64,000 nt of DNA from Tahibacter amnicola (GTDB taxonomy: Bacteria; Pseudomonadota; Gammaproteobacteria; Xanthomonadales; Rhodanobacteraceae), in contig NZ_CP104694.1 of the NCBI RefSeq assembly GCF_025398735.1, positions 2,877,001 to 2,941,000 on the forward strand. Reading direction: 5' to 3'. Below the pieces are notes generated by a model. It was not told where the DNA came from and searched no databases. It saw only the letters and a list, made by a program, of their open reading frames with translations. Below, piece by piece: positions 1 to 20,330 of this stretch (the first letter of the stretch is position 1; each line of letters opens with the position of its first letter). The position numbers were made by a program, and so were the translations under genes.

Positions 1-1
1 G

Positions 2-2083
2 CAGCGCCCCCTGGCACCCGACGGCAGCTACACCGTCTTCGGAATCCCCGGCAATCTGGGCGCCATCCGCGCCCGTGCCACCTGCTCGGATGGCAGCATC
101 GGCCAAAGCCGGGTCGGGTTCACCAATCCGTTCCAGCCGGACATCATCGAATTGGGCCCGATCACCTGGGGCCAGCTCGATCCGATACCGATCGCGGCGA
201 CGCTCAGCGCGCCGGATCGCTTCCTGACCACGGGCGAGACCTCGCAGCTCACGATGACGGCGGTCGCGGCCGACGGATCGCAGGCCAATGTCACGGCGCG
301 CAGCGCCGGTACCGTTTATGCCTTGTCCAACACCTTGCTGGCCTCGGTCACCGAGGACGGCCTGATCCGGGTATACCCGGTGTTTGCCGCCGGCTCGTCG
401 GCGCGCCTGGTGGTTACCGCCACGACGGAAGGCGCGGTGTCTTCCACCTATATGTACATCCTCGGGCCGCGCGGCAGCCTGACCGGACGTGTACTCCGGG
501 CTGACGGCACCACGCCGGTGATCGGCGCCCAGGTGTCGATCGTGCGTCTGCAGACGATGGACCAGGCCGGTACCGCCGTCACCGACACGCTCGGCCGTTT
601 CCGCCTGGATGACGTCAGCGCGGGCAGCTTCCTGATTTCCGGCATCGATCCCGCCACCGGCGACCGCGCCATGGCGACGGCGCGGCTCGAAACCGAAGGG
701 CAGGTGGTGGACGCCGACTTGCGCCTGCACGGCCAAGGCATCGTTCGCGTGACGGTGGTCGGTGCGACGGACGCGCCCGTGCCCAATGCGGAAGTCACGC
801 TGACGACTCTCGGCGGGTTCCGCGAGGTACGCACCCTGGCGACCAACGCCGCCGGCGAAGCCAGTTTTGCCGGCATCGGCGCGGGACTCTTTACCGTTTC
901 CACGCGTCAACAGAACACGCAGCTGGTGGGTACCGCCGTGGGAACCTTGGCCGTCGGCGAGACCTTGCCGATGACGCTGCGCCTGCAATCCATCGGCACT
1001 ATCCGCGGCGTCGCCTACGACGTCGACGGTCAGACGCTCAAGGCCGGTGTGCAGATTCGTCTTCTCAGTCGTGAGCGCGGCATCCTGACCCAGTCGGTCA
1101 CAACCGAGAGCGGCGCGTTTGAATTTGACACGCTGCCGATCCAGGACGGCCCTTTCACGCTCGACGCCTTTATCGATGGCCGTTTACGTGCCCGTGTTCC
1201 GGGCATCGTCATCGGCAATGCGAACGATGTGGTCACGCGCGATGTCGTGCTCAGCCCCGTCGGCGTGGTGCGCGGCCGCGTGCGCAATCCGCTCGGCGAG
1301 GGTTATGCGGGGGCACGCGTGACGATGCAGTCGCTGGTCGGGCTGCGATTGAGCTTCGATGCGCTGACCACCAGCGACGGCGTTTTCGTTCTGCCGGCCG
1401 TGCCGGTCGGCGAATTCGAGCTGACGGCTGTCACCGCCGATCTTCGCACCGGACGCGCCCAGGGGCGCGTTGCCACGGATGCGCAGGTGGTCGAGCGCGA
1501 CGTCACGATTGCCGACGACACGCTCGTCGGCACGGTATTCCAGCGCGACGGCGTGACGCCGGTCGGCGCCGGCGTTGCGGTGTATCTGGCTTCGCAGTCG
1601 CACGGCACGCAATACACCTACGTGGGCAGCACCATCAACGGCCTGCAGCGCACCGAAACGGATGCGCAAGGCCGGTTCGGATTCCCGGTCACGCGCGCCG
1701 ATCGCTATTACGTGCAGGCGGAGCAGAACCTCGACCGCGGCCGCACGGAAGCCATCGTGGTGAATCTGAATCCGAGCCAGCCGCTCGAGTCGCGCATCGT
1801 CTTCCTGGCCAAGGGAACGGTGTCGGGCACAGTCCGCAATCCAGGCGGTGTTCCGCAGGCGAATATTCCGGTGTCGGTCGCGACCCGGGGGCTTTCGACA
1901 ATACCTGGGCCACCACCACGGACGCGCAGGGCCGCTACTCCGTCAGTGGCGTGTTCGCCGGCGAGATCTCGGCGACCGCGCGTGACGACGTCACGCGTCT
2001 GGCGGGCGTCAATGCCGGCCGTCTGGACGCCGAAGGCCAGGCGCTGCCGCTCGATATCACCATGGCCGCCACTGGCCGTGTGA
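2..2083 (+). CDS. Giant carboxypeptidase-regulatory-like repeat surface protein, 5' part (partial, frameshifted)
   Basis: The frame is open from the left edge, so the true start lies outside the window. The first 50 codons before the first ATG (152) read as sensible protein. A Big_2/Ig-like segment covers about 180-460. Five complete beta-sandwich repeats of the carboxypeptidase regulatory-like type follow, with pattern GxVxGxVxxxxGxPVxgAxVxL and TDAxGRFxF, and a sixth begins near 1810. After codon 1883-1885 the protein loses its repeat pattern and becomes Arg/Pro-rich, while the +1-numbered frame continues the sixth repeat from 1888. The real product therefore runs through 1951-10842. The lesion is a five-G run at 1887-1891; six G would restore the frame. 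Codons after about 1888 in this frame are not genuine. The role is probably cell-surface or adhesive, inferred from architecture. Confidence 0.8.
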   Translation, partial: QRPLAPDGSYTVFGIPGNLGAIRARATCSDGSIGQSRVGFTNPFQPDIIELGPITWGQLDPIPIAATLSAPDRFLTTGETSQLTMTAVAADGSQANVTARSAGTVYALSNTLLASVTEDGLIRVYPVFAAGSSARLVVTATTEGAVSSTYMYILGPRGSLTGRVLRADGTTPVIGAQVSIVRLQTMDQAGTAVTDTLGRFRLDDVSAGSFLISGIDPATGDRAMATARLETEGQVVDADLRLHGQGIVRVTVVGATDAPVPNAEVTLTTLGGFREVRTLATNAAGEASFAGIGAGLFTVSTRQQNTQLVGTAVGTLAVGETLPMTLRLQSIGTIRGVAYDVDGQTLKAGVQIRLLSRERGILTQSVTTESGAFEFDTLPIQDGPFTLDAFIDGRLRARVPGIVIGNANDVVTRDVVLSPVGVVRGRVRNPLGEGYAGARVTMQSLVGLRLSFDALTTSDGVFVLPAVPVGEFELTAVTADLRTGRAQGRVATDAQVVERDVTIADDTLVGTVFQRDGVTPVGAGVAVYLASQSHGTQYTYVGSTINGLQRTETDAQGRFGFPVTRADRYYVQAEQNLDRGRTEAIVVNLNPSQPLESRIVFLAKGTVSGTVRNPGGVPQANIPVSVATRGLSTIPGPPPRTRRAATPSVACSPARSRRPRVTTSRVWRASMPAVWTPKARRCRSISPWPPLAV

Positions 2084-5000
2084 AGGGGCGTGTCCTGCGG
2101 CGCGACGGTAGCGTTGTGCCGGGTCCGGTGCGTTTGACCCTGGCCCGTTCAAACCATGCGATCGCCAACGTCGCGCTGCCCGACGGGGCGGCTTACGATG
2201 TCGATCTCGTGCCGGTCGGCGACATCACCGTGTACGCCGAGGAGCTCGGCAACGGCGACATGGGGCTGGCGCGCACGCGCGTCGAATCGGCCGGTGATAC
2301 CAAGACTGTCGACGTGCGCCTGGTCGGCCTCGGCAGCTTGCGTGTGCAGACGACCGACGTGAACAACGCCGTCGTTGCCGGCGCCCGCGTCACCGTCAGC
2401 ACGGAATCGCCGTTCCGCACCAGCCAGGAAGTGATTTCCGGAGCGGACGGCATCGCCGCATTTGATCGCGTCTTCGCCGGCGACTACCGCATTACGGCGA
2501 GCAAGCCGGCACCGGTGGGTGCGCTGTCCGGTTCGGCGGTGGGCGTCCTGCTGCCGAACGAGCAGAAATCCGTGTCCGTGACGATGCGGGCGCGCGCCAT
2601 CGGCCGCATTCACGGTCGCGTGTATCGCTCCGATGGCCAGACGCCGGTCGGTGCGGGCATGGTGGTGCGGATGCTGCCCGAGCCGTTCTTGAACGCCTTC
2701 GTTACGCATACCGACGCCAACGGCCGCTACGCCTTCGAATCGGTCGAAGCCAATACCTATGCGATCGACGCGCTGAACTTCTTCAGCACCGACGGCTGTC
2801 CGCGGCGCGACCGCGTGCGTGGCCGCGCCACCGGCGTGGTGCTGGGTACACAGGGGCAGGAAGTCGAAGCGAACATCCAGTTGATCGGGCAGGGCCAGGT
2901 TGCCGGAACGGTGACGAACGCGACGGGAACGCCGATGCAAGGCATCGCCGTGCGCCTGACCAATCCGGACCCGGTGTACGGCACCAACGTCACCTGCAAC
3001 GGCGCGACGACGTACGACACGGTCACCGATGCGCAGGGTAACTACTCCCTGCCAGACGTGCCGCCCGGTGACTTCACCATTGCCGCGCAGAACGCGGACC
3101 TGTCCTTGCGTGCCGAAGGCCGCGGCCGGGTCGAGTTCGACGGTCACGTGGACGATGTGGATCTGACCCTGATCGACAGTGCGGTCACCATGCCGCTCAA
3201 CCTGCACGATGCCAATGGGTTCCGTTTCGATATTGCCGGCAACGGCAGCATCGTCAACGGCACGAACAATGTGTATGTGGGCAGCGGTTCGGATACCGGC
3301 GGCATGCGTCTGGAAATCGTCCAGAACGGTACCGGGGTTCCTTTCACCAATGGCAACGGCACGCTCGGCCAGCTCAGTGCCAACGGGCAACTGGTGGAAG
3401 TGGATGACCTGACGCCGTCCGGCCTCACGGTCAAGCGGCGTATCTTCACGCCGCGTGCCGGCTATTTCACGCGTTACACCGAAATCCTGCGCAACGACAC
3501 GGCTGCGCCGATCACGGTCGGCGTTCGCGTGAAGTCGCATTTCCGTAATGCGCAGGCCAATGCCCGCGTGGTCGATACCTCCGACGGCGACCAGGTGCTC
3601 TCGGTGGCCCACCCGACGCTGCGCGATCGCTGGGTCGTCGTGGATGACCAGGTCGATGAGGATCCATTCGGCAAGCCGTCGATCCAGGCCAGCGGACATC
3701 TGTTCGACGGCGACGGCGCTACGAATTCGGTAGCGAGCGCCACGTTCGATCTCTCTGGCAGCATCGGCCGGCTGACCTACGAGTGGTCCGACGTTACCGT
3801 GGCGCCCGGTGAACAAGTGGCGCTGATGCACTTCAGCTTCCACCAGATTGATCGCGCCACGGCGCGCGACGCGGCCACGCGCCTGGCGCAGCTGCCGCCG
3901 GAAGCGATCGGCGACCTGACCACCGACGAGCGCCAGGCCATTCGCAACTTCGTGGTGCCGGAACAGTCCGCAGTGCAGGAACCGTTGCCGAATCTCGACG
4001 CCGGTGTCATCAGCGGCCGCGTGCTGGCCAGTGACGGCATCACGCCGGTGCCGCAGGCGCAAGTGCGGTTCAAGAGCCAGCATCGCCTGTTCGGTCGCGT
4101 GCGCTACGCCACCACTGGCAACGACGGTGCCTATGAGTTCCGGTCGCACCTGGACGGTACGGCGAGCAACGCCGTGATTCCGGTCTACGGTTTCTCCTTG
4201 CACGCGGAGCATCCGGCCACCAAGGTGACGACGTCGGTTGCCCAGGGCGCGTTCCCGCCTGATGCCGCCGCGACGGTGCAGGACTTGATCTTCGCCAGCA
4301 CCGGCAACGTGCGCGGTTCAGTGAAGCGCCACAACGGCTCCGTCGTGTCCGACGCCTATGTCCGCCTTTGCCGTCTTGACGATCGAATCCGCTGCTCGGA
4401 TGTCGAGCCTTCCCCGTCCAACTCGGCCACTACCGATACGGCTGGCACGTACTGGATGAGCGGCAATCCGCCGTACAGTTACTTCCTGTTCGCGGACAAG
4501 CCGCACCCGCAGGGCGGGCGTGCGATCTACGGGCGCGCAACCGCTACTACCACTGCCGCCGACACCGAGATCGCCGACATCGTGATGGAGCCCACCGGTT
4601 CGATCGCCGGCGTCGTGAAGGGCGCCAATGGCACGCCCATCGTCAATGCCGAAGTCAAGTTGAGCATCGACAACCCCAATAGTCGTGTGACGCGCTCGGA
4701 TACGGCGGGGCGCTATCGCTTCACCGACGTGCCGGTGGGTCAGCACGGGCTGCACGCACGTGACGTCGTCAGCGGTGCGCAAGGTCTCGCCAACGCCACG
4801 GTGACGGTGGATATCGAAACCGAACAAGACATCGTTCTGCTCGGCTTCGGTACGCTCGATGTACAGGTGAACTACGCGCGCGGCACGCCGGCCGGCAACA
4901 GCCAGGTGTTCGTCGCGGGGATCGTGCAGGACGTCAAGAACGCCGACAGCAATGGCGTCGCCAGCTTCCAGTTGCCGGTCGGCCAGTATCACGTGGTGGC

Positions 5001-8000
5001 CCACCATCCGGACGGGGCCGATCCTTTCGTGGAGGGCCGGACGACGGCGTCGATTCAGCAATACGGCGATCACATCCAGGTCACGGCGACCTTGCTGCCG
5101 GCCGGTGCTGTCCACGGCACCATCGTCCGCCCGGACGGCAGTACGTTGGCCGGCGGATTCCCGTTCTCGATCCAGCAGATCCGAGGCGACGGCGCGAATG
5201 GTCGAAATGGCGTCACTGCGGGAGTCGGCAACTATCGTGTGGGCGGCCTGCCCTTGGGCACCTATTTGCTGACGGCCTACGACGCGGGACAGGACCGCTA
5301 CGCCGAAGGGGAGTTCACGATCGAATCCGACGGCCAGGAAGTGCTGCTCGACTTGACCTTGCTCGATAACCGGATTGCTCTGCCGACGGCGCTGTACGAC
5401 GCGAACCGTTTCCGCTTTGACGTGCAGCGCTCCGGCGCTCTTGAAAGTGGCGAGGGCACCTATTCCGATGCCGGCATGCAGCTGCTGATCAACGGCCAGC
5501 CGTTTGCGGGCGAGGGTAGTGCACGCATGGAGGCCAGTCGTCGCCAGCTGGTGATCAGCCAGCCGACGCCGATCGCCGGACTGAACGTATCGCGCAAGAT
5601 TTACGTGCCTCGCGGCGCCTACTTCGCGCGCTATATCGACGTTCTGGAAAATCCGACGGCCTCGCCGATCACGGTCGCGGTGGATCTGCGTTCGCGCTAC
5701 CGTACGGGTAGCGTCATAGCGACATCCGACAGCAATGCGCAGGTCGGCGCGAACGATCGGTGGGTGACGATCGACGACGCTGTCGATGCGGACGTGCGTC
5801 TGGCGTATCAGATGCCGTCGAGCGCACAGGTCTTTGCCGGTGGCGCGACGGCGCCGGACGTCGTCAGTTTCGACGGTCTTGAACAGCCGACCCTGGCGGC
5901 GCGCTGGTCGACCCTGTCGGTCCCTGCGGGCGGCCGCGTGGCGCTGATGCACTTCGCGGTGCAGCAGATCAATCGCGCCGGTGCGAAGGCGTCGGCGGAG
6001 CGCCTTGTCCAGTTGCCGCCGGAAGTGTTGGCTGACCTGGCCGAGACCGATATTGCAGCCATCCGCAACTTCGCGGTTCCGACGGATCTCGCCAGCACGT
6101 TGCCGCCGCTGCCGGCGCTGACGGCCAGCGTTCGCGGCATGGTGTATGAAGGCGACGTACGCACGCCGGTGCGCGGCGCCAGGGTCACGGTGCAGTCGAC
6201 GCATCCCCTGTTCAATCGCGTCTGGGGCATGCAGCACGACGATCACTGCTCCATGCCCGGCACCGATCTGCCTGGCCTGGTGTCTGTCAGCGCGGTGGGC
6301 GGCGGACCGAATCCGCCGCCGATCGGCAGTTTCGACATACGCGGCGAGCTGTCGACCGCGACCTCGATTCCGCTGCCCGAAGGTGTGGACGCGCGGATCA
6401 CCGTACAGGAAACAATGGACTGCTTCGATCAACGCGCCGGCCACCCCACGACGAAATATCCGTCGCGCGTGACGGTGAAACCGCTGTCGACCACCCACGA
6501 CCTGATTTTCGACACCGGCGTGCTCACAGGTACCGTGCAAGGGCCTGCCGATTTCAGCGTCACGTCGGGCACGGTCTATCGCTCGATCGACGGGCAAGGC
6601 AGTTATTTGTCGCTCTTTGCCAACGTGCGGCCGGACGGGCAGTACGTCTACGCCGGATTGCCGGCGGGCCGGTACGACTTCCTGCTGCACACAACGCATC
6701 CGACAGCCGTGTGGGGCGACGGCGGCTTGCGCGGTGAGCTCAAGCAGATTCAGGTGAACGTCGGCGATGTGGTCGCTGCCAACGTGGAAACCCAACCGAC
6801 CTCGTATATCGAAGGTGCCGTGCTGACCGGCGGCGGTGCGTCCGCGGTCAATGCGGTCGTGAATCTGTCGGGCGCGGCCGCGGAGCAGGCGTACGACCAG
6901 TGCGCGACCGGTTGCGATGCCGCGACGGTGCAGGGCAACAAGGGCAAGCGCGCGGTGAAACGCCAGACGCGTACGGATAGCCTCGGCCGCTACAAGTTCG
7001 CGGCGGTACCGCACGGCGGCTACGATCTCGAAATCATCGATCCCGTATCCAACGCGCATGTTCGCCACGATGTGAGCGTGAACGGATCGCCGGTGGTTCA
7101 GAACGCCATGCTGCCGGCGCTCGGTTCAGCCGAGGTGACGGTGCGCACGCCGGCCGGAACTCCCGCAGTGGACGCCTATGTGTACCTGAAGCTCCCCGAT
7201 GAGCCGGAGCGGGTGGCAGGCCGCACGGACGGGGCGGGACGTCTGACGATTGCCAACATCCCGCAGGGCAACTACCGCGTGCGCGTCGTCGATCCGCGGT
7301 ATCCGAATGATCCGGAGCTGTCGCCGGTGGCGAACGGTTCGATCGCTGTGCAGGGCGAAGTCGACCCGATTGCGCTCGCCTTCAAGGCGCTGATGAGCCT
7401 GCAGATCGCCGTGATCGACAGCACGGCCGGTGGCGCTCCTGTGTCCGGTGCATCGATCCGTCTGGTCGACGCGCGCGGCGAACGCCTCGTCGGCAACACC
7501 AATGCACAGGGCCTGGTTACTGCAAACGCGGTCGTCGAAGGTGCCTACACGGTCCTGGCACGCGTGCAGCACCAGGGGCTGTGGAAGCAGCTGAGTGCCG
7601 AGGGCGTCGTCGCCCCGGCCGACGACGGGCAGTCACGCGTGCTGACCTTCGACGCCGCGGCCGCGGGAGACCGTCCGGATATCCTGGCATTCGAAGGCGA
7701 ACGCCGCCTGTTTGCCGTGATGGCGACGGCCGGCCAGCGTATCGACGTGACCGCCGGCGGACAGGAACCGGACAATTGCGCCATTCGCACGGAAGTGTAC
7801 TCGCCGGGCTTGCAGCTGTTGGCCGAGGGATACGGATTCAGCAGCGGCAACACGATCACCCAGTACAACGAATTCGGCGATCTGCATAACGTCGTCGCTG
7901 CGGTACCCGGGGCGTACACGATTGCCATCTCGGCCCGGTTTGCGTGGTGTCCGCTGGGTGGCTACAGCGTGGGTGCGAGCGTCGACACGGTCGCCACGCC

Positions 8001-10842: not shown

Positions 10843-11372
10843 AAATGATGCGTTGTCTCATTGTGATCCCGCTGTTGGCGGCGGCCGGGCTGGCCGTCGC
10901 CGCCGCAACCCCACCGCGCGAGCGCGTGCTCGGCGGCCTGCTCGTCGACAACGCCGGCGGACGCGGCAGTGCCGTGCCGCTGGAGATCGGGCAGGCGCGC
11001 CTGGTCGTGGTGCTGGACGCGCGCTCGACGCGCAGCCATGCGGCGATCGACGCCCTGCGGCGCGAAGGCTATCGCGGACGTAGCGCCGTGGTGCTGGTCA
11101 TCGGTGATGCTGAATCCTCGCGTGCATTTGCTCGCCGCCGCCAGCTGTTGCCGGAGGCGCGCTGGGTGAGCGCGCGCAGCGCAGCCGTGCTGATGCCGCT
11201 GCAATTGTCTGGAATGCCGGCCATTCTGGGCATCGACAAAGAACAACGCATTCGCTGGCAGGAAACGGGCGTGGCGGAACGCTCGGGCGATTTCGCCGTG
11301 CGCATCAATGACTGGCTGAATTCCGGCGGCGGCAAGCCCGCCGCGGTGAAAGCACCAGGAGGCACGCCATGA
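10839..11372 (+). CDS. Secreted thioredoxin-fold protein without CxxC
   Basis: The start is the ATG of the ATGA overlap with the giant gene. It gives 177 residues with a clean signal peptide (MKMMRCLIVIPLLAAAG...VAA). The mature part has a TlpA/redoxin-like order: a beta strand RLVVVLDARST, a helix HAAIDALRREG, then LSGMPAILGIDKEQRIRW, which resembles the cis-Pro loop and following strand of thioredoxins. The position normally holding CxxC reads ARSTRSH, so no redox pair is present and the mature part shows no cysteine. A structural or chaperone role for its giant neighbours is possible but is inference. It overlaps the RHS gene by another ATGA, placing it between two giant exported proteins. 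Confidence 0.7.
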   Translation: MKMMRCLIVIPLLAAAGLAVAAATPPRERVLGGLLVDNAGGRGSAVPLEIGQARLVVVLDARSTRSHAAIDALRREGYRGRSAVVLVIGDAESSRAFARRRQLLPEARWVSARSAAVLMPLQLSGMPAILGIDKEQRIRWQETGVAERSGDFAVRINDWLNSGGGKPAAVKAPGGTP

Positions 11373-14300
11373 ACCGCGTTGAAGAACCGGCCTGCGTCGT
11401 GGTCGCGCAACCGTCCGCCATTGAATCCCCTGCGGAGCACCGCGTGAATACTCGCCGTACCCCTCGGTTGTTTGCCGCTGTCGTCGCCGTTGTCGCCCTG
11501 TTGACCAGCGCCGCCGGCATGGCCGCGCCCGGTCTGCCCTCGGCGCAGGTACTGGCCGTGGTAGCGGCGGCGGCCGTTGACGGCGAAGTGCCCGATCGCA
11601 TCTTCCGTGACGGCTTCGAAGGTGTCGCAACCGCGTCGGTGGAAATCGTCAGCCCGGCGACGGGCAGCACGGTCTACACGCGGATCCTTCCGGTCGACGT
11701 GCGCGTCCGCGCGGGCACCAGCCCGGTGCAGAGCGTCACCGTCAACGGTCTGCTGGCCGTGGCCGGTGCGACGACCGGCAACGCCACGATGTATCGCGCG
11801 GACGTGCCGCTGACGGACGGCGGCAATACCCTGCGGGCGATCGCCACCTACGGCGACGGTTCCACGCGCGAGACCGAAACGCAGGTCAGCTATGTCGAGG
11901 CCCCGCGCATCACAGTGACCAGTCCGACCGACTGGCAGGTGTTTGGCCCGCTGCCGAACTCCCCCGGTGGCGCAACCAACCTGACCGGCGACGTCGAGCG
12001 CCCGATCAGCATCACCGGCGCCATCAGCAGCGCGGTGGCGCGCGTGGAGATCAACCAGCAGTCGGCCGTACTGGAAAACGGCGGCACCGCGTTCAAGTTC
12101 GAACGTTTTCTGTTGCGCGAAGGCACCAACCTGCTCAGCATCAACGCACACGACGCCCAGGGCCGCACTGTCACGGCGCATCTCACTGTGTACGTGGATC
12201 AGACGGCGCCGATCCTTACGGTGGAAGGATTCGAAGCACCGGTCATCACCTCCGCACGCAAGCTCGACGTTCGCGGTATCGCCAATGATGCCGTGGAAGG
12301 CGGCCTGCATTCGCCGGAGCCGCGTGTCGATATCGTCAATCTGACCAACAACCAGACGGTGCAGGCGGCCGTCAGCGATCGCTACTACATCGCGCGCGAT
12401 CTGCCCTTGGCGGTCGGCACCAACGAGTTGCGCGTCACGGCGAAAGATGCAGTCGGCAATGCGCGCAGCCGCACGGTACAGGTGACGCGCATCGCCGCCG
12501 GTACGCCGCGCGTGACCCTGCTCTCGGGCGATCGCCAACGCGCCGCCGCGCGCAGCGAATTGCCGCAGCCGCTCACGGTGGCCGCGATCGGCCCCGACGG
12601 CCTTCCCCTGGTGAATCTGCCGATCCAGTTCGATATCACGCGCGGTGCGGGCAGCATCAGCGCCGCACCGGGATCGCGAGCGCTGATCGATGGCGTGAAC
12701 CCCGCGCGCCACCTCGTGGTGAACACGGATGCCGCCGGTCGCGCCGGAGTCTGGCTGACGCTGGGCAGCGAAGCGATGGAAGCCGGCGACGTGGTTCGGG
12801 CGAGAACACTCGACCAGGGCGAGGAGGTGGTCTTCACCGCGACCGCGTTGCGTGGCGAACCGCTGTGGGTGCTGATTGCCGGTACCACGGGCAGCCAGTA
12901 CGCGCAGACGAATAGCCAGCCGGTGGAAGGCATGGCCGTGGTCGTGCAAGACCGCGATTTCAATCCCATCGCCGGCGCCTCGGTGCGCTTCACGATCGAA
13001 TCGGGCGATGCGCGTTTCACCGCGCAGTCGGCCCTGGGCGGCACCCCGGCCGCAGACGGTTTGTCGATGACCGTGTTGACTGACAAGAACGGTATGGCGG
13101 CGGTGCGTCCGTTGGCCGGCGGCACGCCGGGTACGGTGAAGGTCAACGCCAGTGCCGCGCTGACGCGTGGTGGCTTCGTCGGCAACGCGTCCTTGCATCT
13201 GGTCGTGCTGGAACGCAGCGACGGACCGACCCGCTTCACCGGCATCGTGCTCGACCATGACGGCACGCCGCTGCCGGGTGTGATTCTGTCGATTACGCGT
13301 ACCAGCCTGGTCGCGCGCACCGATGCGAGCGGACGCTTCACGTTCGACGGTCAGGTGCCGGCCGGCAAGATCGACCTGCACGTCGACGGTCGCGAAGTGC
13401 GCATTCGCCGCGGCGGGCAGCAGCTCGAATATCCGGGCCTGCATTTCGAAACGGCCGTCATTCAAGGCCAGACCAATCAGCTGCCGCATCCGATCTATCT
13501 GCCGCCGATCGACCGGTCGCGGGAAAAGATCGTCGGCGGCAATGCCGACGTGACGCTGGATATTCCCGGTCTGGAAGGTTTCCAGATGGTAGTCAAGGCC
13601 AACAGCGTGACCTTCAAGGACGGCGAGCGCGTCGGTCCGATGGTGGTGACGCGCGTCAACAGCGACCGCCTGCCCATGGTGCCGCCGGGCGGCCAGGCCA
13701 CCTTCGGTGCGGTCGCGTGGACGATTCAGCCGACCGGCGCGCGCTTCGACCCGCCGGTCGAAGTGCGGATTCCGAACGCCACGGGTATGCGTCCCGGCGA
13801 TACGGCCGATATTGTGCAGTGGGATCACGAACTGGCGACCTTCGTGCCGATGGGCCGCGGCACCGTCAACGAAGACGGCACGCAGCTCGTCAGCGACGCC
13901 GGTTCAGGCATCACCAAGGCTGGCTGGGGCGGCAGCACGCCGCCGATCCCGCCGAACGACGGTGACAATAGCGATGACGGCCCCGGTGGCGACGGTCCTG
14001 GCGGTGATGACACGGAAGAAAGTGACAATGAGGAGAATACCGAGGGCGACCCGGTCATCCTCAGCACGGGCGAGTTGCGAGCGTCGGTCACGGATCTTTC
14101 CATCAAGGGCCGTGGCTTCGACTTCCAGTTCACGCGTACGTATCGCAGCAAGTACGAATACAACGGACCGGTCGGTCACGGCTGGAATCACAACCACAAC
14201 GAACGCCTGCATTTCCCGGCGGGCGCCGATGGTGACGTGCGCGCTGCGCGCGGTGACGGCCGTCTCGATACGTACCGTCGTCTGCCCAACGGCAGCTACC

Positions 14301-15691
14301 AGACACCGAACAGCCTCTACACACGTCTGAACAAGAACGCCGACGGTACCTTTACGCTGCGCGACCGGTATGGCTTCGCCACCGAGTTTGATGCCAACGG
14401 CTACATGACCGAGCGGCGCGACCGCAACGGCAATCGCATGACGTACACCTACGATGCGACGCGCCGTCTCGTCACCGTGCACGACACGTTCGGACGTCCG
14501 ATCACCATCGGCTACTACCCGAACGGCCGCATTCACACGGTGACCGATTTCAGCGGACGCGAAGTCGTCTACCAGTACGACAGCTACGGCGATCTCGTGG
14601 GCGTGCGCTCGCCGGTGATCGTCGGTACCTCGACGGGTAACGACTTCCCGCAAGGCAAGCTCACCTCGTATACCTATTCGACGCGTTTCGCCAACGGTGC
14701 GCTCAAGCACAATCTGCTGACGGTGACCGACGGCAATCGCCAGACGTATCTGGAAAATCGCTACGGCCAGAGCGGTTTCCAGCTGGACCGGGTGGTGTAC
14801 CAGCGCCATGGCGCCAACGACCAGGTCTACCACTTCGAGTACCAGGATCTGCCGGGCGGTGCAGCCGATCAGCCGGACGTGCCCGACAACCAGGTCACGA
14901 TGACCGACCGCAACGGCAATGTGGAAGTCCATATCCACAATGCGCGCGGCAATTTGCTTGAGCGCCGCGAGCGGACCAATCGCGACATCAATCCGAACGA
15001 TCCGGCCGAATTCACCACGCTGCACCGCTACACCCTCGACGGTGAACTGCGCGAGACGATTTACCCGGAAGGCAATCGGGTGGAAGTCGTCTACGACACG
15101 CAGAACCCGGATCCGCTCCAGCGCGGCAATCTGCTCAAGCGGATCAAGCGCGCAGGGCCGCGTGGTGCGGAAGGGCAGGAACAGCTCGAAGTCAGCTATC
15201 GCTACGAACCGCTGTTCAACCAGGTCATTTCGGCGGTTGATCCGCGCGGCAATTTGCCGGGCTATGTACCGCCCAACGGCGGTACGGCTTCTGCGGCGCG
15301 CTACACGACGCAGTTCGTCTACGACTATCAGGAATCGAACGACGTTGCGGCGCTGGCCGCGAGCCTGGGCATGACCGAGCAGGCTGTTCGCGATCGCCTG
15401 ACCGCCGCCGGAGTCTCCATCGGCCTGGGCGACGTCAACGGTGACGGCGTCACCGACCAGCGCAAGGGCAACGTCGTGCAGGCGCGCAAGCGGTCGCCGC
15501 GACTGGTCGACGGTTCGACCCAGACGGTTCTGGTCGACTACACCTACAACCGCTTCGGCCAGCCGCTGCGGGAGATCGATCCGGAAGGCAATGTCGATCT
15601 GCACGAGTACTACCCGGAGAACAATCCGGACGGCGCGGGCGCGGCGACCGTATCGACCCGGCCATTGGCCAGCGATACGGGGGTTACCTGA
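11369..15691 (+). CDS. RHS/YD-repeat polymorphic toxin, N-terminal part (frameshifted)
   Basis: ATG 11369 overlaps the upstream stop. A GTG at 11444 with GGAG six bases ahead gives a cleaner signal peptide (TRRTPRLFAAVVAVVALL) and may be the true start. A DRIFRDGFE motif follows the signal. Next come Ig-like domains (about residues 90-370), two further Ig-like regions, one carboxypeptidase-regulatory-like repeat (about 620-670), a ZU5-like region, an acidic Gly/Asp linker (about 860-890) and a DUF6531 start at GDPVILSTGEL. YD repeats follow, such as DRNGNRMTYTYDATRR. The frame ends at TGA just after a five-G run (15679-15683). One more G would read on into the 15751-19731 frame as GGYLKAKIRDAE, so this and the next entry are one gene. 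The signal peptide and absence of a PAAR domain suggest export as a wall-associated RHS protein, not a T6SS effector. Confidence 0.85.
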   Translation: MNRVEEPACVVVAQPSAIESPAEHRVNTRRTPRLFAAVVAVVALLTSAAGMAAPGLPSAQVLAVVAAAAVDGEVPDRIFRDGFEGVATASVEIVSPATGSTVYTRILPVDVRVRAGTSPVQSVTVNGLLAVAGATTGNATMYRADVPLTDGGNTLRAIATYGDGSTRETETQVSYVEAPRITVTSPTDWQVFGPLPNSPGGATNLTGDVERPISITGAISSAVARVEINQQSAVLENGGTAFKFERFLLREGTNLLSINAHDAQGRTVTAHLTVYVDQTAPILTVEGFEAPVITSARKLDVRGIANDAVEGGLHSPEPRVDIVNLTNNQTVQAAVSDRYYIARDLPLAVGTNELRVTAKDAVGNARSRTVQVTRIAAGTPRVTLLSGDRQRAAARSELPQPLTVAAIGPDGLPLVNLPIQFDITRGAGSISAAPGSRALIDGVNPARHLVVNTDAAGRAGVWLTLGSEAMEAGDVVRARTLDQGEEVVFTATALRGEPLWVLIAGTTGSQYAQTNSQPVEGMAVVVQDRDFNPIAGASVRFTIESGDARFTAQSALGGTPAADGLSMTVLTDKNGMAAVRPLAGGTPGTVKVNASAALTRGGFVGNASLHLVVLERSDGPTRFTGIVLDHDGTPLPGVILSITRTSLVARTDASGRFTFDGQVPAGKIDLHVDGREVRIRRGGQQLEYPGLHFETAVIQGQTNQLPHPIYLPPIDRSREKIVGGNADVTLDIPGLEGFQMVVKANSVTFKDGERVGPMVVTRVNSDRLPMVPPGGQATFGAVAWTIQPTGARFDPPVEVRIPNATGMRPGDTADIVQWDHELATFVPMGRGTVNEDGTQLVSDAGSGITKAGWGGSTPPIPPNDGDNSDDGPGGDGPGGDDTEESDNEENTEGDPVILSTGELRASVTDLSIKGRGFDFQFTRTYRSKYEYNGPVGHGWNHNHNERLHFPAGADGDVRAARGDGRLDTYRRLPNGSYQTPNSLYTRLNKNADGTFTLRDRYGFATEFDANGYMTERRDRNGNRMTYTYDATRRLVTVHDTFGRPITIGYYPNGRIHTVTDFSGREVVYQYDSYGDLVGVRSPVIVGTSTGNDFPQGKLTSYTYSTRFANGALKHNLLTVTDGNRQTYLENRYGQSGFQLDRVVYQRHGANDQVYHFEYQDLPGGAADQPDVPDNQVTMTDRNGNVEVHIHNARGNLLERRERTNRDINPNDPAEFTTLHRYTLDGELRETIYPEGNRVEVVYDTQNPDPLQRGNLLKRIKRAGPRGAEGQEQLEVSYRYEPLFNQVISAVDPRGNLPGYVPPNGGTASAARYTTQFVYDYQESNDVAALAASLGMTEQAVRDRLTAAGVSIGLGDVNGDGVTDQRKGNVVQARKRSPRLVDGSTQTVLVDYTYNRFGQPLREIDPEGNVDLHEYYPENNPDGAGAATVSTRPLASDTGVT

Positions 15692-15750
15692 AGGCAAAGA
15701 TCCGCGACGCCGAGACCAGCCCACGCCGTCCGGCGGGCGAGCTGGCGCGC

Positions 15751-18700
15751 GTGCGCAACGACTACGCGTACGACGTCGTCGGCAATGTCACGGCCTTCAC
15801 CGACGGACGCCGTCACGTCACGCAGTACGAACGCAACGCCTTCGATCAGGTCGTCAAGATCACCTCGGCGGCGCCGTTCCTCTACACCGAGGAACTGCAC
15901 TACGACGGTAACAACAATATCGTTCGCCGCGAGGTGGAAAACCGCGATACCAACGGGCCGTCGCTGGACGGCTCGGCGACGGTGACCTACAGCTACGACA
16001 TGCTGGACAAGCCGACCCGGCGCACGGAAGAGGTGTCGACCAGCAGGACGCTGACCACCGAATTCATTTACGACAAGAACGAAAACCTTGCGGAAATCGT
16101 CCAGCCGCTCGGCAATCGCATACGGCGCGTGTTCGACGAACGCGACCTGCTGTATTCGTCGACACGCGGCTTCGGCACGCCCAAGGCCAGCACGACCACG
16201 CGTCGCTATGACGGCAACCGCAATCTGGTCGAGTTCCGCGACGCACAGGACAACAACGGCGACGGCCAGCCCGATGCGCAGCTGCTCAAGTACGACGGCC
16301 ACGACCGCGTGATCGAGCGCCGCGACGCCGTGGGCAACGTCACCAAGATCACCCACGATCCGCTCAACGTGCGGACGCGCGTGCAGCGCTTCGGCCTGCG
16401 CGGCGGCGCCAGCCCGACCAACAATACGGGTGCGGGCAACGTGCTGCTCGCGGAAACGCGTTATCTGCCGGACGAACTCGGCCGCGTCTACCAGATCGAC
16501 CAGCTCTTCGCCGATGCCGCCGGCCAGCCGCTGCCCGACGGTCCGCTCACGCCGGGTGACGGCTTCGTCACGACGCGCCGCAGCTACGACCGCAGCAGCC
16601 ACGTGGTCGGCGTCACCGACGATAACAACCACACCGCCACCTTCGTCTACGACGGCCTGGATCGCCGCGTGCGCCAGACCGACGCACTGAACAACGTCCG
16701 CCAGTTCGGTTTCGACGCCAACAGCAATCTCGAGACCATTCTCGATATCGAGCAGGGCGCCAACGGCACGACCGAAACCTATCGGACGCAGGTGATATAC
16801 GACGAACTGAACCGCCCGGTTTCGTTGACCGACAACATAGGCAACACGACGGCCATCGCCTACGACAGCCGCCACAACGTGATTCGGCGGACGGATGCGT
16901 TGGGGAATGTCACGCGGATGGTGTACGACGGGATTGACCGCAAGATTCGTACGATCGACGAACTGCGCGTCGGCGGCGTCGGTAGCGGTGCTATCGATAT
17001 GAGTAATCCGGCTAATCCGGACGGTCTCAACACCACGACGATCGAGTTGGACGACAACTCACGGATCGCCGGCTTGACGGACGACAAGGGTAATACCACG
17101 CGCTATCACTACGATGCGCTGAATCGCCTCGAACGCACGCAATTCGCGGATGACTCCCTGATCGAGTACGAATACGATCTGGACGACAACCTCAACAAGG
17201 TCACGGATGCCAACGGTTCGGTTCATACGGTCTCGTACGACGCCGTAAATCGTCTGACCGCTGTCGATATTGCGCGTGGCGCAGGTATCGCCGGCACGGA
17301 CAGGCTGCGCTACCAGTACGACGGTGTCGGCCGCCGCACGCGCATGACGGACAACAACGATCCCTCTATCGCAGCGGATGATTCGACTCTGGAAGCGACC
17401 TACGACTCGCTCGGTCGTCCGCTGACCCAGGTGCAGAACGGGCGCGTCGTCGGCAACACGTATGACGGTGTCGGCAATCCGCTGGTGCTGTCGTATCCAG
17501 GTGGTCGTCAGGTTCGTCGCTCCTACGACGAGCTCGACCGCCTCGACCGCATTGCCGAAGTTGCCGGTGACGTGACCATCGGTGAATACGACTACATAGG
17601 GCGCGATCGCGTCAGTGAGCGTCGCAGCGGTAACGGTACTCGCCAGGAGTTCGACATTCCGGGCACGGGCGACGGATACGATGACAATAAACGCGTCACT
17701 GCACTGCGCCATCTCAATGCCGGCGGAACCGTCCTGGCTGAATTCCAGTACGGCTACGACAAGGTCAACAATCCGCGCTACGAGCACGAGTCGGCAACCG
17801 ATAGCGGTCAACTGGTCGAATTGGACTCGGCCTACCGAGTCCAGCGCGCACTGACGGCTCGCCCTGGCGTCGACGTGCGAAACCTGACCAACAATGCCAT
17901 CACCAATGCGGATCTACAGGCATTGAGCGGTGGTGTCGATACGGACTATCGCGTCGACGGCGCAAACAACTGGAACGAGCGCCAGCGCGGTACCGAAACG
18001 ACCCCGTTCGCTACCAACAATCTGAATCAGTACACCCAGATCGGACCACGTTCCCAGCAGCACGACCGCAAGGGCAATCTGACCGAAGACGGCACGCGCA
18101 AGCTGACCTACGACGCTCTCGATCGCCTGCTCAGCGTGGCCGACAACGGCCAGACGGTGGCGAGGTTCCGCTACGACGCCCTTGGCCGTCGTATCGCGAA
18201 AGAAGCCGGTGGCCAGACCACGCAATACCTCCATGATCTGTCGCGCGTCATCGAGGAGCAGGACGATTCGGGCGCCACGCTGCGGACCTACGTCCACGGT
18301 CGGTACCTTGACGAACTGATCCAGCTGCGCAACAGCACGGGCGATTTCTACTACCACGCGAATAGCCAACAGAGCGTGGTTGCGTTGTCCAATAGCGCAG
18401 GCCAGATCGTCGAGCGCTACTCCTATGACGAGTACGGTAAGACGGCGATCAGTGACGCCGCCGGCAATTCGATCGCGCAAAGCGCCGTCGGTAATCCGTT
18501 CGGCTATACCGGCCGCAGCCTGGATACCGAGACGGGGTACTACTACTACCGCGCCCGTTACTACTCGCCGGATCGCGGCCGTTTCATCACGCGCGACCCG
18601 ATTGGCTACCTCGCGGGCATGAACCTGTACGCCTATGTCGACAACAACCCGCTGCGTTGGGTCGATCCGTATGGACTGGACAAGGACAGCTGGGCGGACG

Positions 18701-19731
18701 AATACAAGAAGTGGAAGGAAGAGCGCGAGAAGGAGTGGGTCGACGACAAGCGTTGCGAGGGTATGGCCAACCTCGCCTGTATGGCGTTGGCTGGTGAGAC
18801 GGCGCTGTACGAGTTCTTTGCGGAAGATGCGGTCAAGGCTATTGACGACGCGCGCGAAGGCAAGATCAGCCCGGAAACTGCCCTTGACATCCTGATGGCG
18901 CTTTGTAAGCCGTGCAAGGTCGCTGACAAGGCGAATGACGCGCGGCGGAAGCTGGACAACGCGCCACTCGACAAGATCGATAATGCGTGTTGTTGCTTCC
19001 CGGCAGGTACACAAATCTGGACCGAAGCAGGCCCGGTGCCGATTGAAAACGTTAAGGTTGGTCAGCTTGTGTACGCACGGGATCCCAAGACCGGGGAAAC
19101 CGCACTCAAGCCGGTGACGCAGCTCATCAACACCAAGCCGAAACCGCTGTATCAATTGACTATTCGCGGAGCGGATGGCTCAGTCGAGCAAATGGAGGCC
19201 ACTGGCGATCATCCGTATTGGGTGCCTGAGCGCGGTTGGGTCAATGTCGAAGATATGGAGGCGGGATTGGCCTTCACCGACCTTGATAAAGGTCAGCTGC
19301 TGCTTGAGAAGGTTGAGCTGCTGGACCGCATCGAGAAGACGTACAACTTCTCGGTGGCGGATTTCCATACGTATTTCGCTGGCGAGAAGAAGGTTTTCGT
19401 ACACAACAATTGCAATTGCCGAACTGTATCTAACTACGAGGATGTCACCGACCCTGGTAGCCGATATCCGAATCGGTCGACGGACGTCAGCAAGGCTGAG
19501 TTCGAACAAAACCTTACGGACTCAGGATGGTCGAAAACGGTGAGTAAGGATGGGAAAGTTGCAATCTACGAAAAGGATGGCGCTAGGTACGTCGTCCGCG
19601 ACGGTGCCAAGTCGACGGGTGGACCGACGGCTGATTACTATGGTCCAAATAACACGGGCGGCATCGACGTAAAAATTCGCCTTGACCAACCGCCTACGAC
19701 ACCGCTTCCACCGCCTCAGCCGATGCCATGA
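15751..19731 (+). CDS. RHS/YD-repeat polymorphic toxin, C-terminal part with HINT and toxin
   Basis: This is the same gene after the frameshift, with continuous homology from about 15682. It has more than 25 YD-type repeats, then the RHS repeat-associated core at about 18493-18672 (NPFGYTGRSLDTETGYYYYR, RFITRDPIG, NPLRWVDPYGL), the usual boundary before a variable tip. The tip starts with a helical linker. A HINT domain follows (CFPAGTQIW, ATGDHPYWV, FAGEKKVFVHNN), then about 106 residues that should be the released toxin. The RHS shell is presumed to enclose the toxin and HINT to cut it free, as in WapA/Rhs families. The stop overlaps the next gene by ATGA. Codon use becomes visibly more AT-rich after about 18.9 kb, consistent with an exchanged tip. 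Confidence 0.88.
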   Translation: MRNDYAYDVVGNVTAFTDGRRHVTQYERNAFDQVVKITSAAPFLYTEELHYDGNNNIVRREVENRDTNGPSLDGSATVTYSYDMLDKPTRRTEEVSTSRTLTTEFIYDKNENLAEIVQPLGNRIRRVFDERDLLYSSTRGFGTPKASTTTRRYDGNRNLVEFRDAQDNNGDGQPDAQLLKYDGHDRVIERRDAVGNVTKITHDPLNVRTRVQRFGLRGGASPTNNTGAGNVLLAETRYLPDELGRVYQIDQLFADAAGQPLPDGPLTPGDGFVTTRRSYDRSSHVVGVTDDNNHTATFVYDGLDRRVRQTDALNNVRQFGFDANSNLETILDIEQGANGTTETYRTQVIYDELNRPVSLTDNIGNTTAIAYDSRHNVIRRTDALGNVTRMVYDGIDRKIRTIDELRVGGVGSGAIDMSNPANPDGLNTTTIELDDNSRIAGLTDDKGNTTRYHYDALNRLERTQFADDSLIEYEYDLDDNLNKVTDANGSVHTVSYDAVNRLTAVDIARGAGIAGTDRLRYQYDGVGRRTRMTDNNDPSIAADDSTLEATYDSLGRPLTQVQNGRVVGNTYDGVGNPLVLSYPGGRQVRRSYDELDRLDRIAEVAGDVTIGEYDYIGRDRVSERRSGNGTRQEFDIPGTGDGYDDNKRVTALRHLNAGGTVLAEFQYGYDKVNNPRYEHESATDSGQLVELDSAYRVQRALTARPGVDVRNLTNNAITNADLQALSGGVDTDYRVDGANNWNERQRGTETTPFATNNLNQYTQIGPRSQQHDRKGNLTEDGTRKLTYDALDRLLSVADNGQTVARFRYDALGRRIAKEAGGQTTQYLHDLSRVIEEQDDSGATLRTYVHGRYLDELIQLRNSTGDFYYHANSQQSVVALSNSAGQIVERYSYDEYGKTAISDAAGNSIAQSAVGNPFGYTGRSLDTETGYYYYRARYYSPDRGRFITRDPIGYLAGMNLYAYVDNNPLRWVDPYGLDKDSWADEYKKWKEEREKEWVDDKRCEGMANLACMALAGETALYEFFAEDAVKAIDDAREGKISPETALDILMALCKPCKVADKANDARRKLDNAPLDKIDNACCCFPAGTQIWTEAGPVPIENVKVGQLVYARDPKTGETALKPVTQLINTKPKPLYQLTIRGADGSVEQMEATGDHPYWVPERGWVNVEDMEAGLAFTDLDKGQLLLEKVELLDRIEKTYNFSVADFHTYFAGEKKVFVHNNCNCRTVSNYEDVTDPGSRYPNRSTDVSKAEFEQNLTDSGWSKTVSKDGKVAIYEKDGARYVVRDGAKSTGGPTADYYGPNNTGGIDVKIRLDQPPTTPLPPPQPMP
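18994..19410 (+). other. Pretoxin HINT domain of the RHS protein
   Basis: This is a sub-gene domain. The nucleophile is the last Cys of CCCFPAGTQIW (18994). Block B has ATGDHPYWV with the expected His, and the C-terminal block is FSVADFHTYFAGEKKVFVHNN followed by Cys. HINT domains in RHS toxins cleave between the terminal Asn and the next residue, here 19410/19411. All catalytic positions appear intact, so it is probably active. Confidence 0.8.
19411..19728 (+). other. C-terminal toxin domain of the RHS protein (unassigned family)
   Basis: About 106 residues follow the HINT cleavage point. They begin CNCRTVSNYEDVTDPGSRYP, then a compact alpha/beta region with FEQNLTDSGWSKTV, AIYEKDGARYVVRDGAKSTG and IDVKIRLDQP, and end in a Pro-rich tail. 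I do not recognise a named nuclease or other toxin family and see no HNH or similar motif. The toxin call rests on position after HINT and before a coupled small gene. Confidence 0.6.
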
Positions 19732-20330
19732 GTGAAATAATGTTCATAAAGGAAGAAACTGATCGCAGTCGGATTTCCGGTGCGCTCGCCGCGTCGTTGC
19801 GGGCTGGCAAGGCACTTCCCGAGCTGGTGTTCGACATAGACTTCGAAGCTTTGGGGTTTGAGCAGTTTGACTACGCATTGAGTGCGGATTTCTGGAGTGT
19901 TCTGCAGTCCTTGGCGCGCGCGGCTGGGGAACGCGAAATTTGGCTAGGTGCTTTGACGCCGAGTATTGACTGGTACAGGGAAAGTTTTTCGGTTACGCCG
20001 TGGTTACGGATCCCTATCACGGCGTCTGCCGCAGACTACTGGAATGCGATCAATCGGCCTTTCGACCCCCGGTATCCCGATTCGCTTCTCATTACAGCCG
20101 AATCGATGTTCTGGCTTTCGGAACGTTCGAGTTTCGTTGTGTATGGAGATAGGAGTAGCGAGCTTTGTGTGCTTGCTGCAAAGAAGTTGGTTCCACCGGT
20201 GTTTGATGAGGTTGCGCGAAATTGGAAGTCGGCAGGCGATGCCGCGAAGTCATTTTTGTACAAGCATGCGCCGAACTTTGAAAGCGTCGCGCAGCGTCTA
20301 AAAGAGTGCTATCCCACGAAGAGCCGCTAG
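19728..20330 (+). CDS. Probable immunity protein for the RHS toxin
   Basis: The protein has 200 residues and no signal peptide or membrane segment, so it is probably cytoplasmic. The start ATG overlaps the RHS stop (ATGA), the standard layout of polymorphic toxin-immunity pairs. It is acidic and aromatic-rich (ADFWSVLQSL, AADYWNAINRPF) and matches no family I can name. The DNA is visibly poorer in GC than the RHS shell upstream. The immunity function is inferred only from position, size and cytoplasmic character. Confidence 0.65.
   Translation: MSEIMFIKEETDRSRISGALAASLRAGKALPELVFDIDFEALGFEQFDYALSADFWSVLQSLARAAGEREIWLGALTPSIDWYRESFSVTPWLRIPITASAADYWNAINRPFDPRYPDSLLITAESMFWLSERSSFVVYGDRSSELCVLAAKKLVPPVFDEVARNWKSAGDAAKSFLYKHAPNFESVAQRLKECYPTKSR

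What the first reader, a model, noticed from the sequence alone, without database searches (positions are those of the whole stretch)
2..20330. A 20-kb chain of coupled giant genes: repeat surface protein, CxxC-less thioredoxin-fold protein, RHS toxin, immunity
Each of the three junctions (10839, 11369, 19728) is an exact ATGA overlap, so four genes with products of over 3,600, 177, about 2,790 and 200 residues appear to be translated together. RHS toxins are not known to me as coupled with a giant carboxypeptidase-regulatory-like repeat protein and a secreted redoxin-like protein. The RHS protein also contains one such repeat. A natural reading is a surface delivery or contact system in which the repeat protein presents or anchors the RHS toxin and the small protein assists folding. 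Coupling is seen in the sequence; the joint function is inference.
Basis: partly seen in the sequence, partly recalled or inferred. Interest (0 to 1): 0.85.

Follow-up and report, generated by a model that had tools for sequence, protein, structure and literature searches.

The report
RHS effector beside giant repeat protein
A gene chain for a huge surface-type repeat protein, a small redox-like protein, a toxin-like RHS protein and a probable immunity protein is a real, rare gene cluster found in several distant bacteria, in which the same front end carries different, swappable back ends.

Summary
The chain is real and conserved, but the window's copy is broken. All three junctions are exact ATGA overlaps. 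The repeat gene changes frame twice and the RHS gene once, so the "3,600" and "2,790" residue products are not single ORFs here; this genome's second copy and four relatives keep the repeat gene open over 4,380-4,446 aa.

Relatives show what is constant. The first ~860 aa of the RHS protein (the "N-module") lies beside a giant repeat protein in 12 of 13 testable loci. Its C-terminus is exchanged: RHS-HINT (window, G128), HExxH domains (5 genes), or others. A redox-dead thioredoxin-fold gene overlaps the giant gene's stop in 6 of 6 loci. A vanadium-haloperoxidase-like gene marks the same genomes (6 of 6) but is missing from the window copy. The two RHS-tailed N-modules do not group together (AU p 2.6e-5).

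Best reading: a polymorphic-effector system with a dedicated giant secreted partner. Export route and toxicity are inferred. Eight literature searches found no description. New variant of a known kind.

The parts
1..1950 (+). First piece of the giant repeat gene; its start lies 136 bases upstream of the window; the frame breaks at the very start of the window and near 1,880-1,951
1951..10842 (+). Main piece of the giant repeat gene (2,963 aa): CarboxypepD_reg repeats and three matches to an unassigned ~250-aa unit, the last forming the C-terminus
10839..11372 (+). Secreted-type thioredoxin-fold protein without CxxC, 177 aa; ATGA overlaps on both sides
11369..15691 (+). First piece of the RHS effector gene (1,440 aa): signal-peptide-like start, N-module, DUF6531, first RHS repeats; frame break near 15,630-15,691
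11624..13948 (+). N-module: Ig-like/Big_1/CarboxypepD_reg front end shared with proteins whose C-terminal ends differ
15643..19731 (+). Second piece of the RHS effector gene: RHS repeats, Rhs core, HINT, C-terminal domain
19015..19407 (+). PT-HINT domain (PF07591, E 3e-19)
19426..19728 (+). C-terminal domain after HINT; homologues end RHS-type proteins in G011 and G247
19728..20330 (+). Candidate immunity gene, 200 aa, no known family

Best explanation
It is one copy, broken in this assembly, of a two-component exported effector system. Shown: a giant repeat protein and an effector with a constant N-module are encoded together. The effector's C-terminal end is exchangeable (RHS-HINT-terminal domain, HExxH domain, others). 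A small gene follows the effector in the loci where I looked for one, and a redox-dead thioredoxin-fold gene is coupled to the giant gene by overlapping stop and start. Inferred: both large proteins leave the cytoplasm by Sec signals and cross the outer membrane by a type II-like route; the N-module docks on the giant fibre, which displays or carries the effector at the cell surface; the released C-terminal domain acts on neighbouring cells; the small downstream gene protects the producer. In the window's protein the RHS shell encloses the terminal domain and HINT may release it.
For: N-module beside a giant repeat protein in 12 of 13 testable loci, and beside giant-like proteins in 2 of 2 distant loci. 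In samples of 398 genomes of the order drawn in the same way, N-module in 6, giant C-terminal unit in 9, haloperoxidase-like enzyme in 7; all 6 N-module genomes have all three. Giant/thioredoxin overlap (ATGA or TGATG, nearest ATG taken as start) in 6 of 6 loci; thioredoxin/N-module ATGA in 3 of 3 loci where the two adjoin. Exchangeable ends: two contigs of Tahibacter aquaticus share the N-module end and linker (100% and 95%) and then fall to 30-39%. H-E-x-x-H is invariant in 5 of 5 tails of that family. The two RHS-tailed N-modules are rejected as a clade (the pair was named after the tree was seen), and G128's groups 100/100 with an N-module bearing another tail. Three complete tandem copies, and a fourth cut by the end of the locus, of a secreted-type ~200-aa protein follow the HExxH effector in L016, like a polyimmunity array. 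The window's terminal domain also ends RHS-type proteins in two other genomes. T2SS-type genes (GspE, GspG, a weak PilN match, a secretin) adjoin two Burkholderiales loci, L034 and L042, and T2SS protein G occurs twice in the window's genome.
Against: None of the 6 tails scanned with Pfam (window, L015, L017, L018, L034, L040) or the 3 scanned with NCBIfam matches a curated toxin family; the other tails were not scanned. No toxicity, export or binding was measured. T2SS-type genes were found at only 2 loci, and no match to them was found in the window. One N-module locus, L039, has no giant within its ~8-9 kb flanks. The Burkholderiales tails show no enzyme motif that I recognised by eye. The candidate immunity genes of the window and of G011, which share the terminal domain, are not similar. 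No immunity-type gene was recognised after the RHS gene of G128. The window copy is frame-broken in both large genes.
Confidence: 0.6

Rival explanations
1. It is a secreted surface-enzyme or adhesion system, not a weapon: the giant fibre organises extracellular enzymes (haloperoxidase-like, metallopeptidase-like, RHS) for nutrition, biofilm or halide chemistry.
For: A haloperoxidase-like gene is in all 6 N-module genomes of the order sample, with the vanadate-site motif (K, R, SGH, R...H) kept in the 7 sequences aligned (nearest solved structure the vanadium haloperoxidase 4cit). No toxin family was recognised in the 6 tails scanned.
Against: Rapid divergence after a conserved linker, HINT and RHS, small genes after the effectors with a tandem array in L016.
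Confidence: 0.25
2. It is an ordinary RHS polymorphic toxin that happens to sit after an unrelated surface-protein operon.
For: 13 other RHS regions fetched from the window's genome lack these partners.
Against: The same partners with coupled junctions in another family (G128); adjacency in 12 of 13 testable loci.
Confidence: 0.07
3. The window copy is a decaying pseudogene cluster, kept intact only at the second locus of this genome.
For: Three frame changes in two genes; the haloperoxidase and ankyrin genes are missing here but present in the second copy.
Against: Two of the three changes lie at a 5-base G or C run and the third in a G+C-rich stretch, as uncorrected long-read errors might; the remaining coding sequence of these genes is open and the small genes are intact.
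Confidence: 0.35

Closest known systems
Polymorphic toxin systems (Zhang et al. 2012, PMC3482391; passages seen)
   Same: Constant front end, variable C-terminal domain, HINT and RHS, a small gene immediately downstream; [quoted passage not shown]
   Different: The N-module, the giant CarboxypepD_reg partner, the thioredoxin-fold gene and the haloperoxidase-like gene; the words carboxypeptidase, thioredoxin and haloperoxidase have 0 occurrences in the held part of that paper
Bacterial teneurin-like YD proteins (PMC6425310; passages seen)
   Same: Ig-like domains, then a transthyretin-like (CarboxypepD_reg type) domain, then YD/RHS repeats and Rhs core; this accounts for the single repeat inside the RHS protein
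   Different: No NHL propeller found in the window's protein; the front end is used without YD repeats in most relatives
T6SS Rhs effectors
   Same: RHS shell with a terminal variable domain and downstream gene (recalled)
   Different: Signal-peptide-like start (by eye) and no PAAR or VgrG domain found
Vanadium-dependent haloperoxidases (PDB 4cit)
   Same: Relatives' clusters encode a protein that keeps the vanadate-site motif (residue roles recalled)
   Different: Usually beside, or in G128 fused to, ankyrin repeats; absent from the window copy

Membership tests
Polymorphic toxin system | Conserved N-terminal region with exchangeable C-terminal domain | tested here: met
Polymorphic toxin system | Cognate immunity gene directly downstream | tested here: inconclusive
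   A 200-aa gene overlaps by ATGA; protection untested; no family match
Polymorphic toxin system | Releasing domain (HINT) before the terminal domain | tested here: met
   PF07591 E 3e-19
Polymorphic toxin system | Terminal domain is toxic | not testable with these tools
   No curated toxin family matched the window's domain
RHS/YD-repeat protein | RHS repeats and Rhs-associated core | tested here: met
   PF05593, TIGR03696
Bacterial teneurin-like protein | NHL beta-propeller between transthyretin-like domain and YD shell | tested here: not met
   No NHL match in P0004 or P0005 at E 0.01 by sequence profile
T6SS Rhs effector | PAAR or VgrG trafficking domain | tested here: not met
   No match at E 0.01
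Thioredoxin family | Thioredoxin fold | tested here: met
   [not shown]
Thioredoxin family | Redox-active CxxC | tested here: not met
   Absent in 6 of 6 homologues aligned
Type II secretion substrate | Exported by a T2SS | not testable with these tools
   T2SS-type genes adjoin L034 and L042 only; T2SS protein G occurs twice in the window's genome

The most novel reading that the evidence does not exclude
An undescribed delivery system: a ~4,400-aa transthyretin-type fibre with a coupled redox-dead thioredoxin chaperone displays a standard docking module whose C-terminal warhead is swapped between lineages, alongside a dedicated vanadium haloperoxidase with ankyrin repeats. The RHS toxin of the window is one interchangeable warhead.
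Probability: 0.4. Interest if true: 0.8.

Novelty: new variant of a known kind. Interest (0 to 1): 0.62.

Why it matters
How Sec-exported RHS and other polymorphic effectors of Gram-negative bacteria reach other cells is, to my knowledge, largely open. A conserved giant partner with a standard docking module gives a testable answer for one group, and links it to a haloperoxidase-like enzyme not tied to such systems in the papers I could search.

Tried and rejected
Rejected: chance adjacency. Rejected: the RHS part as the conserved partner; the N-module is. Rejected: a general RHS-giant link, since none of the 13 other RHS regions fetched from the genome has one (tblastn at E 1e-6).

Literature: eight searches gave no paper on this gene cluster. 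Papers seen: passages of PMC6425310 and PMC3482391; search listings only for the others.

Limits: searches scored at most 2, 2, 6 and 4 candidates per genome; one search scored 150 of 305. One search depended on two peptide patterns. Signal peptides were judged by eye. That searches drew the same 398 genomes is inferred from the genomes they list. G004 being Tahibacter aquaticus, and so the genus of the window, is inferred; the family Rhodanobacteraceae rests on G001's contig having the same length as the named record JAEUPP010000020.1. In one search my row labels call the G004 contigs T. aquaticus on that inference. The pair tested was chosen after the tree was seen. PHROGs and PADLOC were not searched.

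Full report
WHERE. The window is 2,877,001-2,941,000 of a 6.46-Mb single-contig genome. A same-genus genome, G001, has a contig of the same length as a named Rhodanobacteraceae MAG record, so the family is taken as Rhodanobacteraceae; the genus is probably Tahibacter (inference).

OBSERVATION. The three ATGA overlaps are exact. The small genes are intact. The two giant genes are not single ORFs. The repeat gene begins 136 bases before the window, in a frame that reads a signal-peptide-like sequence followed by the conserved start of giants. It leaves that frame within the first ~15 bases of the window and changes again near 1,880-1,951. The RHS gene changes between about 15,630 and 15,691. Two of the three changes lie at a 5-base G or C run, the third in a G+C-rich stretch (read). 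Five giants elsewhere are open, stop to stop, over 4,380-4,446 aa: the second copy in this genome, G027, G038, G076 and G128. G128's RHS gene is open over 2,717 aa. Assembly error and decay cannot be told apart here.

WHAT IS CONSTANT. The thioredoxin-like protein has matches in 4 of 41 genomes, this genome included, 5 places in all. I fetched the flanks of all 5; each lies directly after a giant repeat gene and near a protein sharing residues ~87-860 of the RHS protein. That N-module (A1) was found in 13 loci of the named genome collection, in 6 of 398 genomes of the order, in 2 of 33 of G128's family, both already in the order sample, and in 3 of 398 of the phylum, this genome included. Counting one locus per gene cluster, 13 loci have enough flank to test: window, L015, L016, L017, L018, L040, L056, L034, L035, L037, L038, L039, L042. 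A giant is present in 12 and not found in L039. Contigs end too soon for L036, L041 and the Tahibacter-type pieces (L043, L044, L057, L058). L032, L033 and L054/L055 repeat loci already counted. The two distant phylum hits, L063 and L064, also have a large protein whose start resembles the giant's (28-29% over 144-154 aa); in L063 it has only one weak CarboxypepD_reg match.

GENE ORDER. In Lysobacterales: window giant-Trx-N-module/RHS-small gene; G128 giant-Trx-ankyrin/haloperoxidase fusion-N-module/RHS; L017 giant-Trx-N-module-278 aa-ankyrin-haloperoxidase; L018/L059 giant-Trx-N-module-359 aa-DsbA-like-N-module-small gene-ankyrin-haloperoxidase; L016 giant-Trx-DsbA-like-ankyrin-haloperoxidase-N-module-small genes; L015 giant-Trx-a ~530-aa ORF-N-module-205 aa-DsbA-like-ankyrin-haloperoxidase; L040 giant-ankyrin-haloperoxidase-N-module. 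The Trx gene is in 6 of these 7 loci and was not detected in L040. The haloperoxidase-like gene is in 6 of 7; no match was found in the window or in 17 kb upstream. In the six Burkholderiales loci with flanks the N-module gene comes first; a ~230-aa gene family follows in 5 of 6 (L034, L037, L038, L039, L042; not L035), and the giant follows in all but L039. T2SS-type genes adjoin L034 and L042.

COUPLING. Taking the nearest ATG as start, giant and Trx genes overlap by ATGA or TGATG in 6 of 6 loci. Trx and N-module genes overlap by ATGA in 3 of 3 loci where they adjoin (window, L017, L018).

CO-OCCURRENCE. In samples of 398 genomes of the order, apparently the same ones, the N-module is in 6, the giant's C-terminal unit in 9 and the haloperoxidase in 7. 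All 6 N-module genomes have the other two. Giant-unit matches without a found N-module: G022, G143, G236; the contigs of G143 and G236 are about 10 kb, and the hits of G022 and G236 are in smaller proteins. Haloperoxidase without N-module: G047, at 37% identity.

WHAT VARIES. After the N-module come RHS-HINT (window, G128), an HExxH family (L015, L016, L059, L043, L044; H, E and H invariant in 5 of 5), a tail with HESRH (L040) and further tails in L017, L018 and the Burkholderiales; between these groups tblastn at 1e-4 found no similarity for the tails used as queries. L043 and L044 are 100% and 95% identical up to the end of the linker and 30-39% after it. On the N-module tree, G128 (RHS) groups 100/100 with L040 (HESRH), not with the window; much of the rest of that half of the tree is unresolved. 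Forcing the two RHS-tailed rows together is rejected (p-AU 2.6e-5; pair chosen after seeing the tree). The window's N-module is 58-59% identical to two HExxH-tailed ones (52% to a third) and 47% to G128's, whereas the RHS parts of window and G128 are 52-54% identical.

THE PARTS. The Trx-like protein is predicted to have the CcmG/DsbE/ResA fold without CxxC, so redox catalysis is unlikely and a binding role more likely (inference). The haloperoxidase-like proteins keep the vanadate-site motif in all seven aligned sequences (residue roles recalled); phosphatase activity is not excluded. The terminal domain of the window's RHS protein matches 3 of 250 genomes of the order, this one included; in the other two it ends RHS-type proteins. 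Its function is unknown. Its model resembles weakly a teneurin stretch, which Foldseek's ranking does not support.

MECHANISM. Shown: linkage, coupling, exchangeable ends. Inferred: Sec export, type II-like passage, docking of the N-module on the giant fibre, release of the terminal domain, immunity by the small gene. The main rival is a surface-enzyme system that is not a weapon.

KNOWN AND NEW. Polymorphic toxins with HINT, RHS and T2SS export (PMC3482391, passages) and bacterial YD proteins with Ig-like and transthyretin-like domains (PMC6425310, passages) are known. The giant partner, the shared N-module with non-RHS ends, and the haloperoxidase link were not found in eight searches.

Noticed in passing
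L015 (genome 150,001-170,000): The same genome holds a second copy of the cluster, with an open giant gene, an HExxH effector end, and DsbA-like, ankyrin and haloperoxidase-like genes.
   Followed up: yes
L016:17333-20000: Three complete tandem copies, and a fourth cut by the locus end, of a secreted-type ~200-aa protein follow the HExxH effector, like a polyimmunity array.
   Followed up: partly
L019 (genome 3,012-3,020 kb) and L020 (contig start): RHS-repeat matches with identical scores at several places suggest recent duplication of RHS genes; the contig start lies inside one.
   Followed up: no
L027 and L028 (genome 3,877 kb and 6,309 kb): Two RHS-HINT loci share a 55-57% identical HINT with the window but show no match to the giant or thioredoxin-like genes.
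   Followed up: partly
L056:9479-11170: Ankyrin repeats fused to a haloperoxidase-like domain in one 563-aa frame, elsewhere two adjacent genes.
   Followed up: yes
[not shown]
   Followed up: partly
L063 and L064: Distant N-module proteins with small membrane-type or secreted-type genes before a giant-like gene; in L063 there are two N-module hits.
   Followed up: partly
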